Assembly: GCF_021134715.1 (NCBI RefSeq)
Contig: NC_060026.1
Coordinates: forward strand, 3,782,001-3,846,000
Length of the DNA: 64,000 nt
From: Daphnia pulex
Taxonomy: Eukaryota > Arthropoda > Branchiopoda > Diplostraca > Daphniidae
Direction: 5' to 3'
Positions 35,540 to 62,830 of the stretch are shown here, in pieces; within the stretch, counting starts at the first letter, position 1, and each line of letters starts with the position of its first letter. The position numbers and the translations under genes are program-made. The notes beneath the pieces were generated by a model. The model was not told the DNA's origin. It was given only the letters and a program-made list of their open reading frames with translations, and made no database searches.

Positions 35540-35612
35540 TTGTAATGATGAATCACTATTCACCATCTTTCGACTGAAACTTTGTGATGGTATATTTTTT
35601 ACCTGATGCATG
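35540..35612 (+). ncRNA. C/D box snoRNA, array copy 1
   Basis: C box ATGATGA (35545-35551), D' CTGA (35574-35577), C' TGTGATG (35583-35589) and D CTGA (35603-35606), with a short TGTA/TGCA terminal pairing. The guide before D', TTCACCATCTTTCG (35559-35572), is complementary to CGAAAGATGGTGAA, which I recall as conserved in eukaryotic large-subunit rRNA. Confidence 0.8.
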
Positions 35613-35754
35613 ATTTCAGTAAGAAAAATAGCGCCGCATAATTCGTCTATCTAAAGATTACTACTTTTGTTTAGGTTTTCGGTCGCTGCGGTCATTGACT
35701 ATAAATGCTGTGCAATGCAGGTAACAATAAATTCCTCTTTTACATGCTTTTTTC

Positions 35755-35822: not shown

Positions 35823-35963
35823 AAAATTTTGGTTTAAATGCGAAGTTATCTTCTTAAATAAACGACTGTTCTTTCTGATAGGTTTTCCCGTTCGCCGAGG
35901 TCAATGGGGAAGAAAGTTGTGAATTACAGGTAGCTATTTAATAAATTTTATTTTACACCGTTA

Positions 35964-36032
35964 TTCAATGATGAAACATTTTTCACCATCTTTCGACTGA
36001 TAGTAATGATCGATTAAATTTTTACTGAAGTA
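35964..36032 (+). ncRNA. C/D box snoRNA, array copy 3 (more diverged)
   Basis: C box ATGATGA (35968-35974), the same guide at 35982-35995, D' CTGA (35997-36000), a weaker C'-like TAATGAT and D CTGA (36025-36028). The 3' half has drifted; it may be functional only through its D' guide. Confidence 0.65.
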
Positions 36033-36477
36033 AATTTACATCGCGTAGTCGTTTATACAATGAATGTTACTAATTCTAAAATTTATTTTCAGGTATGCAA
36101 AAGTAGGAAAACTCCGGGAATGTCATTTTCGTTTCAGTTCTTACTACGAAGATATTGTTCATAAAGTTTAAGAATTTGATGTGATGACAATAAATAGGTT
36201 TTGCAAAATAATCTTTATACATCTCAACTCTTTTTAAATTAATAAAATGCTTCATCAATAATTAATATTACTAATTAAATCTCAAATTTTATCAATTATT
36301 CAACGTTAGTAAAGCAAATTAATTTAACAAATTTGAATTAAAAAAAAATTAATACATAATTGAATGGTAATGTGTAATAAACACCAAATATCCAACAAGT
36401 TTCATTCCCAAACGCTCTGTACAAAGCACAGCACGAGAAAGGACTAGCATTGAAAGCAATAAAACAAATAGGTGCAA

Positions 36478-41282: not shown

Positions 41283-42038
41283 ATGAAGGTAAGAAAATTA
41301 GAAAACAAAAAATGTTATTCAATATTCTTGATACATTTAGAGAAAAATAAATGTATACCTTTGTATTCTATTAGTTCTTCGTTCTCGCTGCCGTTTTCGC
41401 CGTTGCTGCCGCCAGTTCTTACAAGGCTGCCGAATACGCACCCAAATACGAAGCTAAATACGAGGAAGTCACTTATGTGAGTCTGCTAATGATGATTCAA
41501 GAAAATAATTATCACATAAACTAAATCTTCAACTGGATTACGACATTTTCAGGCCCCCCAGCCATACAGCTTCGAATACGACGTCCAGGATAAGGAATCT
41601 TACAACGACTTTGTCCACTCCGAGAAATCCGACTACAACGTCGTCACCGGATCTTACCGTGTTGCTCTTCCCGATGGCCGCACCCAAATCGTCTCCTACA
41701 AGGCTGACGCTTCCGGATACAACGCCGATGTGAAATACGAAGGCGAAGCTCAGTACCCCGAAGAGCCCAAATACAAGGCTGCTTCCTACCCTGCCCCAGC
41801 CTACTCTGCCCCGGCCTACAAAGCCCCAGCTTACCCTGCTGCCCCAGCCTACCCCGCCCCAGCTTACAAAGCCCCAGCCTACCCCGCTCCCGCCTACAAG
41901 GCTCCCGAATACAAAGCCCCAGCTCCCGCCTACAAGGCTCCTACTTACTCCGCTCCCGCATACAAAGCTCCCACTTACTCCGCTTCTGCCTACAAAGCCC
42001 CAGCCTACAAGCCCGCTCCTGCCTACCCTAAATACTAG
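41283..42038 (+). CDS. Cuticular protein with Rebers-Riddiford domain, copy A
   Basis: Three exons (41283-41288, 41375-41476, 41553-42038) give 197 residues. Exon 1 encodes only Met-Lys, a classic cuticle-gene layout. Exon 2 completes a signal peptide (FFVLAAVFAVAAASSY). Exon 3 opens with the chitin-binding R&R consensus, PYSFEYDVQDKESYNDF, then GSYRVALPDGRTQIVSYKAD and SGYNADVKYEG, closest to RR-2/pro-resilin types. The C-terminal half is a run of PAYKAPAYS-type repeats that gives an elastic, disordered tail. It is secreted from epidermis into the exoskeleton, where it binds chitin. A TATA promoter fits strong moult-cycle expression. The minus strand is also open through the repeat but is only a shadow. 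Confidence 0.95.
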
Positions 42039-42410
42039 GTCCCCTTTATTCTCAAACATATTTTCCACCGTGAATAATTTAACAGAAGTAACTTAATGCG
42101 GAACAATTCAGTACATTTTTTCTTAAATTGTGCATAAATCAAATAGTGTTGATATTGAAATGAGAGAAAATACAATTGTTATTTTATACAGTTCAATTGG
42201 TTGCATAATCTTTGGCATAATCGCGATGTATATCGTATATCGCGATGGATCGCCTTGTGCCGGGTCGACGGAGAAATAGTTTTAAAGTAATCAATTGAAG
42301 AGAAACCATTTTCATTAAAATTTAATTACCAAGTTAATGAAAAAAAAATCCGAAATGTATATTTCAATTCACAGAAACTGTAGAATATGGGTTTTATTTG
42401 GACAGGTGAG
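42039..42410. other. Spacer between convergent genes
   Basis: AT-rich 3' sequence of both neighbours. It contains a small symmetrical patch, ATCGCGAT twice around TATATCGTATAT at about 42220-42250, of unknown meaning. Confidence 0.4.
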
Positions 42411-44906
42411 TTAAATTTCCATTTTTAGCAACTTGGAGATAACTTCCGAAACGAAATTTCTACTTTTCTCAGAAATTTCGTAGACAAACATGCTGTTATC
42501 AAAAAAAGATTTCATCTCCGAAGAGTTCATTGGGAACTGCTTCAATACACCGATAGCGTGTCGAATGGTATCTTTTGATTCCCAAGGTGGCGGGCTGTGG
42601 AAAACTAAATACTCAATCAAACAAGTCTTGATAGCGTAAGAAGACGGACAAATTTTTCTCGGAATATCTAACTTTCTGTCCTGCTTCGCCTTATGGGCTT
42701 GAAGCGAAAATAAAAGCTTGAGGAGCTGATAGACCCTGGCCACACATTCTCCAGCGCTTAGCAACAAATCCCTTTCCACGGTTGGATAAGTTATCTGCCA
42801 ATGGCTGCCTGCAGTGCGACGGTAAGGAACGAGAAAGGCGGGCATGTGACGAGGGATTGAGCACCATTTGGGAAATATGGCCGTTACATTATTGGATTGC
42901 TCTTTGCAGAAGTCGACGGCCACGGTGATATCGACGCTGGCTTTCATGGCTGGTGGATATCGACCTCTGTACAGGAAATGGATAGTCACGCAGGTTTCAC
43001 CGTACCCGACTATTGGCCCAAAGACGTGGACACTAGAAACACTATCTTTAGCCGTGTCCACTAATTGGGTAAAGTGGCGAAGTAAACTACTGGAATTAAT
43101 CGGTTCGTCAGCCTCTAGTGAAGAATCCGCTTCACGACACGTTCCAGCGTAGACGACTTGTTTACAGTTTGGGGCTGACTGGCGGAAATGTTTAAGAACG
43201 ACAACCTTATCGAATTCACAAGGCAGAAAAACGTCCGTCTTTTCAGAAGAACTTCCGCACATGTAATACCGTTCGATCTCGAAAAGTGGGTCGATTTCTT
43301 TGATTTTATGCAGGAGCCTTATCAGATAAGCGTCAACATCTCGGCTTACTTGACACCATTTACAAAAGTTATGGTTATGGTGGTCGTAGTTCGGGTGAGA
43401 ATGTTTGTCCAGGTAGTCGTTGATTTTCTTCATCGAGATGGTGTTGCTGTCGTGCCAAGCAGACAAGAGACTGAGCCACTTTTGATAAGACGGAACCCAA
43501 ATGTGCCTGGGTCGACTTTCGTACCGATAAGTGCAAATGTCGTTATAAGTAACTTTATTATAAAAAATCCCTTTTTTCTTATGAGGCGATTGGACGAAAA
43601 ACCGAGGCACAAATTCTAACATGTCTCGAAGTTCGATTATATAATCTTGACTAAGATCCTCGTCGTCTTGACAACACTCTTTGCACAGGCTGAACGATTG
43701 GGTAGCTACTTCTTCCATGTAATCGAATGGGGTTTTATAATTAACGTCAACGGGAACAGCTGGCAAATAGAGCATCAACTTCTTGACGGAATGAGGACAA
43801 CCTAACAACGATGCATTCAGAATTATTCGTCCCATTGACTGCATGTCTAAACGTAAGCGGATACCGGACGAGAGCTCGCCCAATAAAGAGTGGAGCCTCC
43901 CGCTCCAGTTTCGTGAAAATGCTTCCAACGTCGTAATTCCGCTTTTGGTTCTCCAGCCGATAATCTTTGCATTGGAAGGAACGGCCGAGAGACAGCGAAC
44001 GATTTCGATCACGTTTTCTCTGCAATAGTTGCTGCAGATGAATTGCAGGGCGTTCCAGCCCCCGCTGTCTGCACAATTGACGTCCGCTCTGTTCTCGATC
44101 AAGAGCCGGACGCAGTCGATGAGGTCTTTAGACCCGCGGAAGCAGCACAGGATAATCAAGGGGGTGCGCATATTGTTGTTTTTCGAATTGACGTTGATCC
44201 CGTGGGAAATGAGCAAGCGGATAACGTCTGGCAAATTCTCGTGACTGTAATAGCGGACCAATAAACTCAGAGAATTGCTTCCGAAATCGGTCCGGCAGTT
44301 GACATCGAAATTGATACTATGCTGGAACAACAAGCTCAAGATTTCAAGTAAATTCTCGTTGTTATAGTAGCGACTCAGAAGCAACAAGGCATTGCATCCG
44401 TCGTCGTTCTTGGCATTTAAATCAATTCCGTGCTGAATCAACAAGCGGAAGAGGTCAAGAAGATTCTCGTCGGCGTGATAGCGACAGAGTAGCAAGAGAG
44501 CGTTCCATCCCTTCAGATTTCGATGGTTAATGTTGATTTGTCGTTGACACAATAATAGCAGAGACTGAATGCAAGGGAAAAGATCGTTGCATCGATTCGT
44601 CCGACACAGCAGCAGTAACGGATTGTTTCCATCGACGTCGACGCAGTTAATGTCAACGTCGAGGTCCTGGACGAGGTGAATCAGTCGCTCTATTCTGCCT
44701 CTGGTGGCTACTGGGTTGGCGCATAGTGCCAACAGTTCTTCTTCTTTCTGAAATTATATTACACATCAGATATGAATACCAGTGAGAATGTTAGGATAGA
44801 ATTAGTGCTAAACTGTGAACTTTAGTTACTATACCTTATTTTTAAAATATGATAGATGCACCGAGTTGGTGGTGATGTTTGGAAAAGCTACGAAGCTTAT
44901 TTCCAT
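42411..44906 (-). CDS. Ankyrin-repeat / Mab-21 (cGAS-like receptor) fusion protein
   Basis: Two exons (44906-44835 and 44747-42411) give 802 residues. Residues about 40-285 hold at least six ankyrin repeats with an unusual LLLLCR/LLLLSR core (for example GWNALLLLCRYHADENLLD). The C-terminal half is a Mab-21/cGAS-type nucleotidyltransferase: Gly522-Ser523 of the GS motif, then after exactly 11 residues Glu535-Phe-Asp537 (CEFDKVVVL), and the third acid Asp630 in ASVDITVAVDF. The helical half follows (WQITYPTVERDLLLSAGE, SSYAIKTCLIEYLVF). Spacing and triad match active cGAS, while MAB21L proteins typically have a changed triad. No cGAS zinc ribbon is seen, as in insect cGLRs. It probably senses a ligand and makes a cyclic dinucleotide for STING. 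Ligand and product are unknown. Next upstream is another ankyrin gene. Confidence 0.85.
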
Positions 44907-45426: not shown

Positions 45427-47800
45427 CTACATCTGCTGTGCTCGCTGTGCTCTTCTTAATCTGCTCTCTGCATTCTTCGATTTGAAATCTAATGCTATGT
45501 CGAGAGCAGTTTTCCCGTCAACGTCCATTTCATTGACGACATCAATAAATTTGTCAATAATAAAATCCAACAAATCGACTGGAATTTCTGGCCAAGAAGC
45601 GGCAATGTGGAGTTGTGTCTGGTTGCTTCTATTCCGGATGCGTACGTCAACAAAATAGTCACTCTCCTTTAGCAACTTTGTGGTTGCTATCTTTGATTTT
45701 GAATTCAGCGCGCAGAATAGAGCAGTGCGATTGTGCTCATTGTCGCGCGATGTCTTATCTAGAATCAGATTGAATAGATCAACTGGTATATTTGGCCACC
45801 TGCAGGCGCAGTGTAAGGCTGTAAAATGGATTTCATTCGCGATGTTGACGTTCACAGGCTCACGATTTCCATCTTCACGATTTTCCAGATAACTCAGCAG
45901 GATCTTGGTTGCTTTCTTTGATTTTCTCAACAACGCAAATTGGAGAGCAGTATTTCCGTGGTTATCTGTTGCGTTGACATCGGTGGTTTTTTGTAGAATT
46001 CGCGTGAAAATGTCATCGGTGAAATCGGACCAACAGGCTATGTAGTGTAGTGCAATTTCTCCACTGTTGCCCTTTATGTTGACATCAACAGCATCATGAT
46101 TCAGCAGTAGTTGAATTGCGGTTTCTGATTTTTTGGCTAATGCGAAGTGAAGGGCGGTACTATTCGAAACGGTCGTTGCGTTGACATCGTTGGATTTTTT
46201 CAGAATGAACTCGAATAGTTCAACTGGAATACTCGGCCAATTGGCGGCATAATGCAGTGCTGTCATTCCGCCGGCACCCACGCTGTTGACATCCAACGAA
46301 TTTTCCATATTCTTCCTTTTTATGTGTTTCAACAGCATCTTTGCAATAGATTTGAATTCGGAACTCAGTATGTAGTGGAGAGGAGTATTTCCATTCGAGT
46401 CTGTTTGATTCAGGTTTTCACTCTTTTCCAATAACATTTTGATTTTAAATTTCGACGGTGATCTTTCGGATAGTGCCCAGTGTAAAGGAGTTGAACCGCG
46501 CACATCCACTAGATCAACTCCTATTTCTGAGTTTGCCTTACTTAGAAGTTGTGCTAAATAGTTTATTTCGACATTTAAGTTTAGTAGCTAAATGAAGTGG
46601 GGTCTCACCAAGAGAATTGGTGGTATTGATGTCACCATCCCATTCATCTAGAATCTTCTCAACGACTGCCCATTTTTCTCCGTACAAAGCCAAATGCAGA
46701 ACCGTGCCGTTCGTTGGATTCACCACCCCGCTGCCATTAATAGTTCCACTAAAATCAAATTCTTCGTTTGAATTGAGATACTGTAAAATAATGTAGCGAA
46801 CATTTTGATCCGACAAATTATTACTGGTGGCATTTTTCTCCTCCGTCAAGTAGTCTTCCATATCTTTTCTAGAAAAAGCTTGGACCCATTCGAGGAGGGT
46901 ATAGCCTTGAGAGTCGGCACTGTTAAAGTCTGTTGTAAATTTCTCCACTAGACGTGTGAATTCCGCGAAATCATTATCGATGATCGCTTTATAACAATCC
47001 ATTTTATCGCAATTTAGAATGTGACTGTACTTGATTGCATCTGGGTCGAATGCGGAGCCAGCAGCTTTCTGGATGGTGTGTTTAAATTTATCAACTAGAC
47101 CACTTGTTACAGTCGACCACATTTTCCCTTCTCCATTAGCCCTTTCGAATACGAACGATGCGAAATTTTGACAGTTTGCAGTAAGGAGATTGTACGGTTT
47201 GCTCACTTGACTCGTATAGAATAGAGCCGCCAATAAAGTGGAGAGCGCTGCGTGATTGCCTACAGCACTTGCCAAGGCTTTCGTCGGCTCGAGTCTGAGC
47301 ACGAGACTTTTCTTGTGCACGTCGTACACGTATTTAATCATTTCAGATCCTTCAGAGTCGGTAAATTGATTCAACACATTCGATTCAGTCGGTTGTTTTG
47401 GCGACGATTGACGCAGAATAATGTAAATGCCATTTTTTTCGAGAGACCACCACGTACGGCTACCGTCAGTCGAGTTTTCCGTTCTGAAAATGACGAAAGC
47501 ATGAATGGCGATGTTGTTTGATTGCACACTAGATGTAAGAGGATTGGAGTAGACCCAAACCCATCTGACAATGTCTTGCAACAACGGTTTCAGAATTTGC
47601 ACATTGGACTTTGAACTCTTTAAATACTGGGCGAAATTCAAATCATACACTTTTCCGTCGTCATCTTGGTGACCGAAATATTGAAGAAATAATTCCGGTA
47701 TTTCACTGACGATGTCGACTTCCGTACTCACATCCTGTACGTAGAGCAGTTTTTTAATGAACTTTTTTCCCATGGCAAGGTCGCCTGAAGCAGAAGACAT
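45427..47800 (-). CDS. Papain-like-fold / ankyrin-repeat protein, frameshifted
   Basis: A 420-codon frame from the ATG at 47800 and a second frame ending at 45427-45429 overlap in different phases near 46538-46587. Together they would give about 790 residues. The N-terminal domain has His100 in IAIHAFVIFRT, a WWSLEKNG strand and Cys210 in LLTANCQNFASFVFE. That His...Asn-Cys-Gln order fits circularly permuted papain-like (LRAT/NlpC-P60/PPPDE-type) folds; this is inference. From about residue 345 ankyrin repeats run to the end (TVLHLALYGEKWAVVEKIL, TPLHLATK, STPLHWALSE, ALHYAANWPSIPVELFEFI). The break lies inside a repeat, in TPLHLATK, where one extra A in an AAA run shifts the frame. It is either a true indel (truncated protein of 420 residues), a sequencing error, or unlikely programmed shifting. 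No intron fits. Confidence 0.7.
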
Positions 47801-50246: not shown

Positions 50247-50364
50247 TGTCAGAAGTGGGATTTGAACCCACGCCTTCTATCGAAGACCAGAATTCTATTC
50301 AACCGGACGTCCCGGCAAGCTGTTGGCTTGAGTCTGGCGCCTTAGACCGCTCGGCCATCCTGAC
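50247..50364 (-). tRNA. tRNA-Leu (CAA) with a 34-nt intron
   Basis: The minus strand reads GTCAGGATGGCCGAGCGGTC at the 5' end and closes with GGTTCAAATCC (T arm) and CTTCTGAC plus discriminator A. All seven acceptor pairs form (with G-U allowed). The long variable arm TCTTCGATAGAAGGC marks a class II leucine tRNA. The anticodon stem CCAGA/TCTGG encloses CTCAAG plus T, giving anticodon CAA. The intron, 50293-50326, sits after position 37, the canonical place, as usual for eukaryotic tRNA-Leu(CAA). Confidence 0.95.
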
Positions 50365-61212: not shown

Positions 61213-62830
61213 AACAGCCCAGATTGGGCACCTTGTTTGCTTCTAGAGAAAACATACATAACCAAGTCTGATTGTGATAGGACACGGAGAAGAGTCAAAT
61301 GTTTACCCACATGTAATATTTCTATCAAATTTTACACAATAACTAATTCTTTTAACCAAATCATCTTGTTACACCAGATAAAGGAAACAGGAGGAATCAA
61401 ACTATGTCAACTATTGAAAACAAAGATGTTGTTGCTGTAGAACCAAATGTAGAAGACAATGTAGCTGATGCTGGTGAAAATAGCAGGAATCCAAATATGT
61501 CAACCAATGAAGACAAAGAAGTGGGTTGTGCAGAACCAAATGCAAGTTTAGCAGACCATGTTTATGCTGGTGAAAACAATGAATCTAACATCACATTTCA
61601 TTCAGAAAGTGTCAGTGAGATTCATGATGACACAGGATTGGTTTTAAACCTAGGTAGTCTGATTTTCAAGTTATTCAAATTGAGTTTAGTTTCTTACTTC
61701 ATCTTCTTTATGTAGAAATCCCGTCACATAATTTTCAAGAGTCAGACTTACAAAAACCTGACCTTAATGTTGAATTAAAGAAAGTTATAGTGGAGTTACA
61801 GAACAGAAATTCAGAACTTGCAAGTAAAGTGGAAATACTAAATGCAAACATAGTTGAACTAAAATCTGAACTGGAGTCCTCAAAGGTAGAAATATCACAA
61901 TTACAACTTGAAATCGCCAAAGGGAAAGCCGAAAAACAGAAAGATTTGTACACCCGTTGCATTGAAGACGTAGAGTTAATGGTTTACTATACCCGCTTTA
62001 CCCCAACAGCCTTTGAAGCAATTTTTCAAGGAGTTCTGCCCCTGAAACATAACAACAACTCATGTTTAGATTTTCGTCGTCAGTTTTTCTTAACATTGAC
62101 AAAACTAGTACATAACTTTGGTTTCCAAGATTTGTCTGTTCAGTTTAACGTTTCTAGACAAACTATATCGAACTACTTTCATTTCTGGGTAGGGCTACTC
62201 CACGATCGTTTTTTCTCTAGAGTTGTTTTTTGGCCATCTCAAGAATCACTGAAAAAAACTATGCCAATGTGCTTTAGGATGGATTTTTTTAACACTGCAG
62301 CAATATTGGACTGTTTTGAGTTACAATTCGATACTCCTCATATTCCAACTGACCCAGCCGCTTCTTTTTCCTCGCACAAACAAAGGACAACTGTGAAATA
62401 CTTAATATCTGTTACTCCTCAAGGTTCTTTTAATTTTGTTTCAAATGGTTTTTGTGGGAGAGTGAGTGATAAACAAGTTGTAATTGATAGTGGAATTTTA
62501 AATAACTTGAAACATGGCGACCTAATTTTGGTAGACAGGGGTTTCCCTTTAGAAGAAGTAGTTGCATCGCGAGGCGCTCAATTCATGGTACCTGCGTTTA
62601 TGAAAGAAAGAAATCAACTTCCGGAAATTGAAACTAGGCGCATAGAAAATGTTAGGATTCATGTAGAAAGAATCATTGGGGCAACTAGAGCCAGATTTCA
62701 AATGTTAAAAGGTCCTATCGACAGGAATTTTCTAAATTCAGATAATGAGTCTACGGGTTTTGTCGACAAAATAGTAAAAGTATGTTGCATTCTTTCTAAC
62801 CTCTTACCAAGTGTGGTTCCCCTTGACTAA
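61213..62830 (+). CDS. DDE superfamily transposase (DDE_Tnp_4 type), 5' truncated
   Basis: Exons up to 61312, 61378-61653 and 61716-62830 splice in frame with 65- and 62-base introns. About 496 residues remain. The first exon piece (NSPDWAPCLLLEKTYITKSD) resembles the linker after an N-terminal THAP finger, but no finger is present: the foldback element abuts it. Then come an acidic region, a coiled coil (ELQNRNSELASKVEILNANI), a helix-turn-helix (LSVQFNVSRQTISNYFHFW) and the catalytic core with Asp in AAILDCFELQFD, Asp in LILVDRGFPLEEV and Glu in VRIHVERIIGATR. The DDE triad is complete. It would cut and paste its own element; without the DNA-binding N-terminus it is probably inactive or repressor-like. 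A start at 61404 would leave 454 residues. Confidence 0.85.

What the first reader, a model, noticed from the sequence alone, without database searches (positions are those of the whole stretch)
42411..44906. Ankyrin-repeat cGAS-like receptor with an intact catalytic triad
The C-terminal half carries the GS motif (Gly522-Ser523) and, at the exact cGAS spacing of 11 residues, Glu535-x-Asp537, plus a third acid (Asp630) in a VDITVAV context. Most Mab-21 proteins have a changed triad, so this one looks enzymatically competent. The N-terminal ankyrin array is a domain pairing not found in vertebrate cGAS and may serve as a ligand- or partner-sensing module. That would make it a candidate invertebrate nucleic-acid or pathogen sensor acting through STING.
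Basis: partly seen in the sequence, partly recalled or inferred. Interest (0 to 1): 0.88.

Follow-up and report, generated by a model that had tools for sequence, protein, structure and literature searches.

The report
Ankyrin-linked cGAS-like receptor gene
This animal gene encodes a divergent cGAS-like enzyme domain with its catalytic residues kept, joined to ankyrin repeats; it is probably an innate-immune signalling enzyme, but of a kind already described in other invertebrates.

Summary
The gene is real and lies on the minus strand: a proposed 24-codon first exon (44906-44835), an 87-base GT-AG intron, and a long second exon (44747-42411), 802 residues in all. Residues about 41-280 are ankyrin repeats. 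The C-terminal part matches no Pfam model and no PDB chain by phmmer. A profile from four PDB-checked relatives does recognise it and sets its GS, E-x-D and third Asp on the cGAS ones: HMM E 0.0016, best of 2,298 sequences; hhalign E 4e-6, 0 of 300 shuffles as good. Pairwise it is closer to human cGAS and a solved cGLR1 than to Mab21L1. So it is very probably a cGAS-like receptor (cGLR) with a potentially working active site. Ankyrin-cGLR fusions are already reported (PMC9980059), so this is a new member of a known kind. Nucleic-acid sensing and STING signalling are untested. Three shrimp Mab21 proteins neither bound dsDNA or dsRNA nor made detectable cGAMP (PMC12928593).

The parts
44835..44906 (-). 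Proposed exon 1: ATG and 24 codons in all
   Evidence: Joins in frame to exon 2 through a GT-AG intron; no transcript data
44748..44834 (-). Proposed intron, 87 bases, GT...AG, phase 0
42411..44747 (-). Exon 2: residues 25-802 and stop codon; AATAAA begins within 20 bases after the stop
43980..44699 (-). Ankyrin-repeat array, about residues 41-280
   Evidence: Pfam Ank_2 E 1.3e-16 and other Ank models; ankyrin-bearing NCBIfam models, far below their cut-offs; self-similarity peak at 37 residues
42414..43352 (-). cGLR/Mab-21-like nucleotidyltransferase domain, residues 490-802
43251..43256 (-). GS motif, Gly522-Ser523
   Evidence: aligns to human cGAS G212-S213
43209..43217 (-). Glu535-Phe-Asp537, first two catalytic acids
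   Evidence: aligns to human cGAS E225 and D227
42930..42932 (-). Asp630, third catalytic acid (SVDIT)
   Evidence: aligns to human cGAS D319; Mab21L1 has Gln in this column

Best explanation
This is a divergent, probably arthropod cGAS-like receptor. A C-terminal nucleotidyltransferase domain, with the metal-binding acids E535, D537 and D630 kept, makes a cyclic dinucleotide or related nucleotide signal when a ligand is bound. The N-terminal ankyrin array docks a partner protein or helps gate the enzyme. Shown here: the two-part architecture, family-level homology, and conservation of the triad, of the GS loop and of some substrate-pocket positions. Inferred: catalysis, the product, the ligand, the role of the ankyrin repeats, the host group, and an immune output through STING or another receptor.
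For: The profile of four PDB-checked relatives finds the C-terminal part best among 2,298 sequences (E 0.0016; best shuffle 0.39), with the GS, EFD and VDIT motifs in register. hhalign gives E 4e-6, probability 87, 242 columns and 25% identity, with 0 of 300 shuffles reaching it. Smith-Waterman z is 7.8 to human cGAS, 7.5 to cGLR1 (8gjy), 4.8 to mouse cGAS and 3.3 to Mab21L1. Human K414, S435, Y436 and K439 are kept as K701, S727, Y728 and K731. Foldseek puts cGAS at ranks 1-3 of 350,542 chains with one poor model and at rank 1 with the other, not significantly.
Against: No Pfam or PADLOC match for the domain and no phmmer match in the PDB. Its C-terminal half alone ranks only sixth of 2,001 in the profile test. 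Several human cGAS positions differ (R376 to Q675, K362 to Y666, S380 to P679 among them). The strict motif of Li et al. is not matched; a relaxed form is. Both structure models are poor. No STING or downstream gene could be looked for. Three shrimp Mab21 proteins made no detectable cGAMP.
Confidence: 0.6

Rival explanations
1. A Mab21-type scaffold that does not make cyclic nucleotides. It binds and activates a kinase such as IKK-epsilon, as reported for three shrimp Mab21 proteins, with the ankyrin repeats as the docking surface.
For: Shrimp LvMab21-1/2/3 did not bind dsDNA or dsRNA, made no detectable cGAMP and bound IKK-epsilon (PMC12928593, abstract and sections 2.1-2.2). Ankyrin repeats are protein-binding modules (recalled). 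R376 and other positions are changed.
Against: All three acids and the GS loop are kept in an otherwise highly diverged domain, which suggests selection on catalysis. [quoted passage not shown]
Confidence: 0.22
2. An active nucleotidyltransferase with a role outside immunity, or one gated by a non-nucleic-acid ligand sensed through the ankyrin repeats.
For: Domain pI 8.45, no zinc thumb, several basic positions of human cGAS lost. Li et al. report cGLRs active without added ligand, some of them highly acidic, and propose unknown ligands.
Against: No direct evidence; the ankyrin ligand is unknown. The domain is not acidic.
Confidence: 0.14
3. A decaying or mis-modelled gene: the true transcript may differ from the one proposed, or the gene may not be expressed.
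For: Exon 1 is only predicted, and the neighbouring ankyrin gene appears to change frame near 46.55 kb.
Against: Exon 2 is open for 778 codons and is followed closely by AATAAA. The ankyrin and NTase parts lie in one open frame.
Confidence: 0.04

Closest known systems
[quoted passage not shown] Li et al. 2023, PMC9980059)
   Same: A cGLR nucleotidyltransferase core fused to ankyrin repeats
   Different: The domain here is too diverged for Pfam to find
Human cGAS (PDB 5v8o)
   Same: GS loop with the same 11-residue spacing to E-x-D, third Asp, K414/S435/Y436/K439; 25-27% identity over 237-242 aligned positions
   Different: No zinc thumb; T211, K362, R376, S378, S380, K407, K411, H437 and N482 changed; ankyrin array added
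cGAS-like receptor 1 (PDB 8gjy)
   Same: Triad, GS, K414 and Y436 equivalents; 68 of 271 aligned positions identical
   Different: The solved chain has 376 residues, and residues 15-347 match Mab21L1, which leaves no room for an ankyrin array
Mab21L1 (PDB 5eog) and shrimp LvMab21-1/2/3 (PMC12928593)
   Same: Same superfamily
   Different: Mab21L1 has D-N for GS and E/E/Q for the triad in the alignment and scores lowest of the four references (z 3.3). The shrimp proteins were not compared by sequence

Membership tests
cGLR (criteria of Li et al., PMC9980059) | Active-site motif: GS/GG loop, then [E/D]h[E/D], about 50-90 residues, third [E/D] | tested here: met
   G522-S523, E535-F-D537, D630; 92 residues between second and third acid, human cGAS 91. 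A relaxed pattern (up to 95) matches. The strict h[QT]GS...[DE]h[DE]h form does not: C521 stands for Q/T and K538 for a hydrophobic residue. The printed human and 8gjy sequences also depart from the strict form before GS (N-T, H-K)
cGLR (criteria of Li et al., PMC9980059) | Sequence homology across both the NTase core and the C-terminal helix bundle | tested here: inconclusive
   Core half alone is best of 2,001 (E 0.00062); C-half alone is sixth of 2,001 (E 1.1). The whole-domain hhalign path (E 4e-6) runs through both halves
cGLR (criteria of Li et al., PMC9980059) | Predicted structure like cGAS/CD-NTases | tested here: inconclusive
   Single-sequence models have pLDDT 38.1 and 42.5. Foldseek top ranks are cGAS but best E is 0.065 and 0.41, with TM-scores of 0.10-0.17
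cGLR | Synthesis of a nucleotide second messenger | not testable with these tools
   needs protein
Ankyrin-repeat protein | Tandem ankyrin repeats above the Pfam cut-off | tested here: met
   Ank_2 61.4 bits against cut-off 27.3; Ank_4 58.6 against 22.7
Vertebrate-type cGAS | Zinc thumb H390/C396/C397/C404 (residues recalled) | tested here: not met
   Ala, gap, gap, gap at these columns
Developmental Mab21L1 group | Closer to Mab21L1 than to cGAS/cGLR1 and with its changed active-site columns | tested here: not met
   z 3.3 against 7.8 (human cGAS), 7.5 (8gjy) and 4.8 (mouse cGAS); D and GS kept where Mab21L1 has Q and DN. Pairwise only, not a phylogeny
Pfam Mab-21 family (number PF03281 from PMC10732462) | Match to the Pfam model | tested here: not met
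   No match at E up to 10, with HMMER's filters on, for residues 374-802

The most novel reading that the evidence does not exclude
The ankyrin array, not the NTase surface, is the sensor: an arthropod receptor that recognises a host or pathogen protein through ankyrin repeats and converts it into a cyclic-nucleotide signal, which would make it a protein-gated rather than nucleic-acid-gated cGLR.
Probability: 0.12. Interest if true: 0.65.

Novelty: new member of a known kind. Interest (0 to 1): 0.33.

Why it matters
In the papers I saw, ankyrin-bearing cGLRs are noted but the job of their ankyrin part is not tested. This one is so diverged that Pfam misses its enzyme domain, so similar receptors may be undercounted (inference). 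If active, it would be a direct test case for whether cGLRs can be gated by proteins.

Tried and rejected
Relatives: scans of viral contigs with the domain and with a three-sequence alignment, and of genome contigs, gave 2, 67 and 30 pattern matches, none of which encodes a relative by tblastn. In the window, tblastn found no second copy; the only match outside the gene at E below 1 is ankyrin-level similarity to 46527-45937. A PDB search with the three-sequence alignment finds cGAS relatives by construction and is not used as evidence.

Structure: two AlphaFold jobs without relatives gave poor models, so the meeting of the three acids was not tested. I did not treat the cGAS top ranks of Foldseek as proof: best E is 0.065 and 0.41 and TM-scores are 0.10-0.17.

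Considered and rejected: a zinc cluster at residues 473-489 (7 His/Cys in 17) is reached by 282 of 10,000 shuffles, so it is unremarkable. A fusion transcript with the upstream ankyrin gene: an AATAAA follows the stop at 45427, so I kept the genes apart, but no transcript tests this. NCBIfam matches to bacterial ankyrin effector models are far below their cut-offs and reflect ankyrin repeats only. The host species was not identified; a crustacean such as Daphnia is a recalled impression, not a result. The species of the reference PDB chains and the roles of human cGAS residues are also recalled, save where an output names them. Human K173 and R176 lie outside the reference used and were not compared.

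Literature: searches for cGAS-like receptor + ankyrin + Daphnia and Daphnia + Mab-21 + ankyrin found 0 papers; broader searches are. Papers seen: PMC9980059 (sections 5, 6 and 19, and passages), PMC12928593 (outline with abstract, sections 2.1 and 2.2), PMC10732462 (passages), PMC13144350 (passages); all others in search listings only.

Full report
What is in the sequence. Proposed exon 1 (44906-44835) gives 24 codons from an ATG, an 87-base intron begins GT and ends AG, and exon 2 (44747-42411) gives residues 25-802 and a stop. Exon 2 has an in-frame stop just upstream of its acceptor, and its first Met is residue 217, so some upstream exon is needed; the one proposed fits in frame but has no transcript support. 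AATAAA follows the stop codon closely. G522, S523, E535, D537 and D630 are all confirmed.

Domains. Pfam finds ankyrin repeats in the N-terminal part (Ank_2 E 1.3e-16, three stretches), and the protein's self-similarity over residues 30-330 peaks at 37 residues. The C-terminal 429 residues match no Pfam model at E up to 10 with HMMER's filters on and no PDB chain by phmmer at E 10; the last 314 residues match no PADLOC model at E 1.

Is the C-terminal domain a cGAS relative? I took four reference sequences checked against PDB chains (human cGAS 5v8o, mouse cGAS 5n6i, cGAS-like receptor 1 8gjy, Mab21L1 5eog) and built a profile. In a set of 2,298 sequences (the full protein, its C-terminal part, 296 other window ORFs, 2,000 shuffles) the C-terminal part ranked first (E 0.0016, 14.9 bits) and the full protein second (E 0.0085); the best shuffle had E 0.39. 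The alignment puts GS on GS, EFD on EFD and VDIT on VDIT. hhalign gave E 4.1e-6 and probability 87 over 242 columns; 0 of 300 shuffles reached its score, the best having E 0.0047. Pairwise Smith-Waterman against 1,000 shuffles gave z 7.8 for human cGAS (0 shuffles as good), 7.5 for 8gjy (0), 4.8 for mouse cGAS (3) and 3.3 for Mab21L1 (8). Split in two, the core half is best of 2,001 (E 0.00062) but the C-terminal half is only sixth of 2,001 (E 1.1), and hhalign of that half alone has E 0.058. The helix bundle therefore rests on the joint alignment and on the SY..KT...W pattern.

Active site. Against human cGAS, E225, D227 and D319 fall on E535, D537 and D630. G212, S213, K414, S435, Y436 and K439 are kept; T211, K362, R376, S378, S380, K407, K411, H437 and N482 are changed, K384 is Arg, and the zinc-thumb residues are missing. 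The roles of these human residues are recalled. Mab21L1 has D-N in place of GS and E/E/Q in place of E/D/D in the same alignment. The calculated pI of residues 490-802 is 8.45; the paper reports above 8.5 for nucleic-acid-sensing cGLRs. I did not check that the two calculations are alike, and 8gjy itself comes out at 8.31 in mine.

Structure. Two AlphaFold runs without relatives reached pLDDT 38.1 (residues 374-802) and 42.5 (the last 314 residues). Foldseek ranked cGAS chains 1-3 for the first (E 0.065 to 0.2) and rank 1 for the second (E 0.41), with TM-scores of 0.10-0.17. This is a hint only, and since Foldseek also uses the letters it is not independent of the sequence match.

What it most likely does. 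The best reading is a ligand-gated nucleotidyltransferase of the cGLR family with an ankyrin docking module. The main rival is a scaffold without catalysis, as for shrimp LvMab21-1/2/3, which did not bind dsDNA or dsRNA, gave no detectable cGAMP and acted through IKK-epsilon (abstract and section 2.2). Conservation of every catalytic acid in a domain that has otherwise drifted beyond Pfam favours catalysis (inference). STING could not be looked for, because no whole genome is held. In one survey, 10 of 19 animal species with a cGLR-like sequence but no detectable STING were arthropods (PMC10732462, passage).

What is known. Li et al. (PMC9980059) report that 87% of cGLRs have no appended domain, that some carry ankyrin or TPR repeats, and that three S. 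[quoted passage not shown] The architecture is therefore a known kind; this gene is a new, strongly divergent member. Whether this particular protein was in their set of 3,020 I could not check.

Surroundings. Upstream on the same strand, 47800-45427 encodes ankyrin repeats behind a weakly PPPDE-like N-terminus (PF05903 E 0.0087, below its cut-off). Elsewhere in the window are two LRR ORFs, a BAHCC1-like Tudor match, a DDE transposase, two snoMe28S-Am982 matches and a tRNA match. With the intron this fits an animal nuclear genome; arthropod is my inference, and the species was not identified.

Noticed in passing
45427-47800, minus strand: Neighbouring gene with a weakly PPPDE-like N-terminus (PF05903 E 0.0087, below cut-off) and ankyrin repeats (Ank_2, 8 stretches in the second ORF). 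Its two ORFs meet inside an ankyrin repeat near 46.55 kb; of 47 frame-keeping GT-AG pairs tried, the 40 printed include no clear intron, so it may be a frameshift.
   Followed up: partly
43830-44732, minus strand: The ankyrin array has a self-similarity peak at 37 residues rather than the usual 33 (recalled).
   Followed up: partly
43353-43403, minus strand: His/Cys-rich stretch, residues 473-489, just before the NTase domain; 282 of 10,000 shuffles have as dense a stretch.
   Followed up: yes
41538-42068: Low-complexity open frames on both strands; the plus-strand one (41730-42038) encodes a Tyr/Pro/Ala/Lys repeat protein with an extensin-like Pfam match far below its cut-off (16.3 against 105 bits).
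   Followed up: no
61790-62830, plus strand: DDE_Tnp_4 transposase ORF with HTH_Tnp_4.
   Followed up: no
35540-35614 and 35963-36036, plus strand: Two copies of a C/D-box snoRNA match, snoMe28S-Am982, about 420 bases apart.
   Followed up: no
50247-50364, minus strand: tRNA match of 118 bases to a 71-position model, so perhaps with an intron; ARAGORN, run with its bacterial settings, reported none.
   Followed up: no
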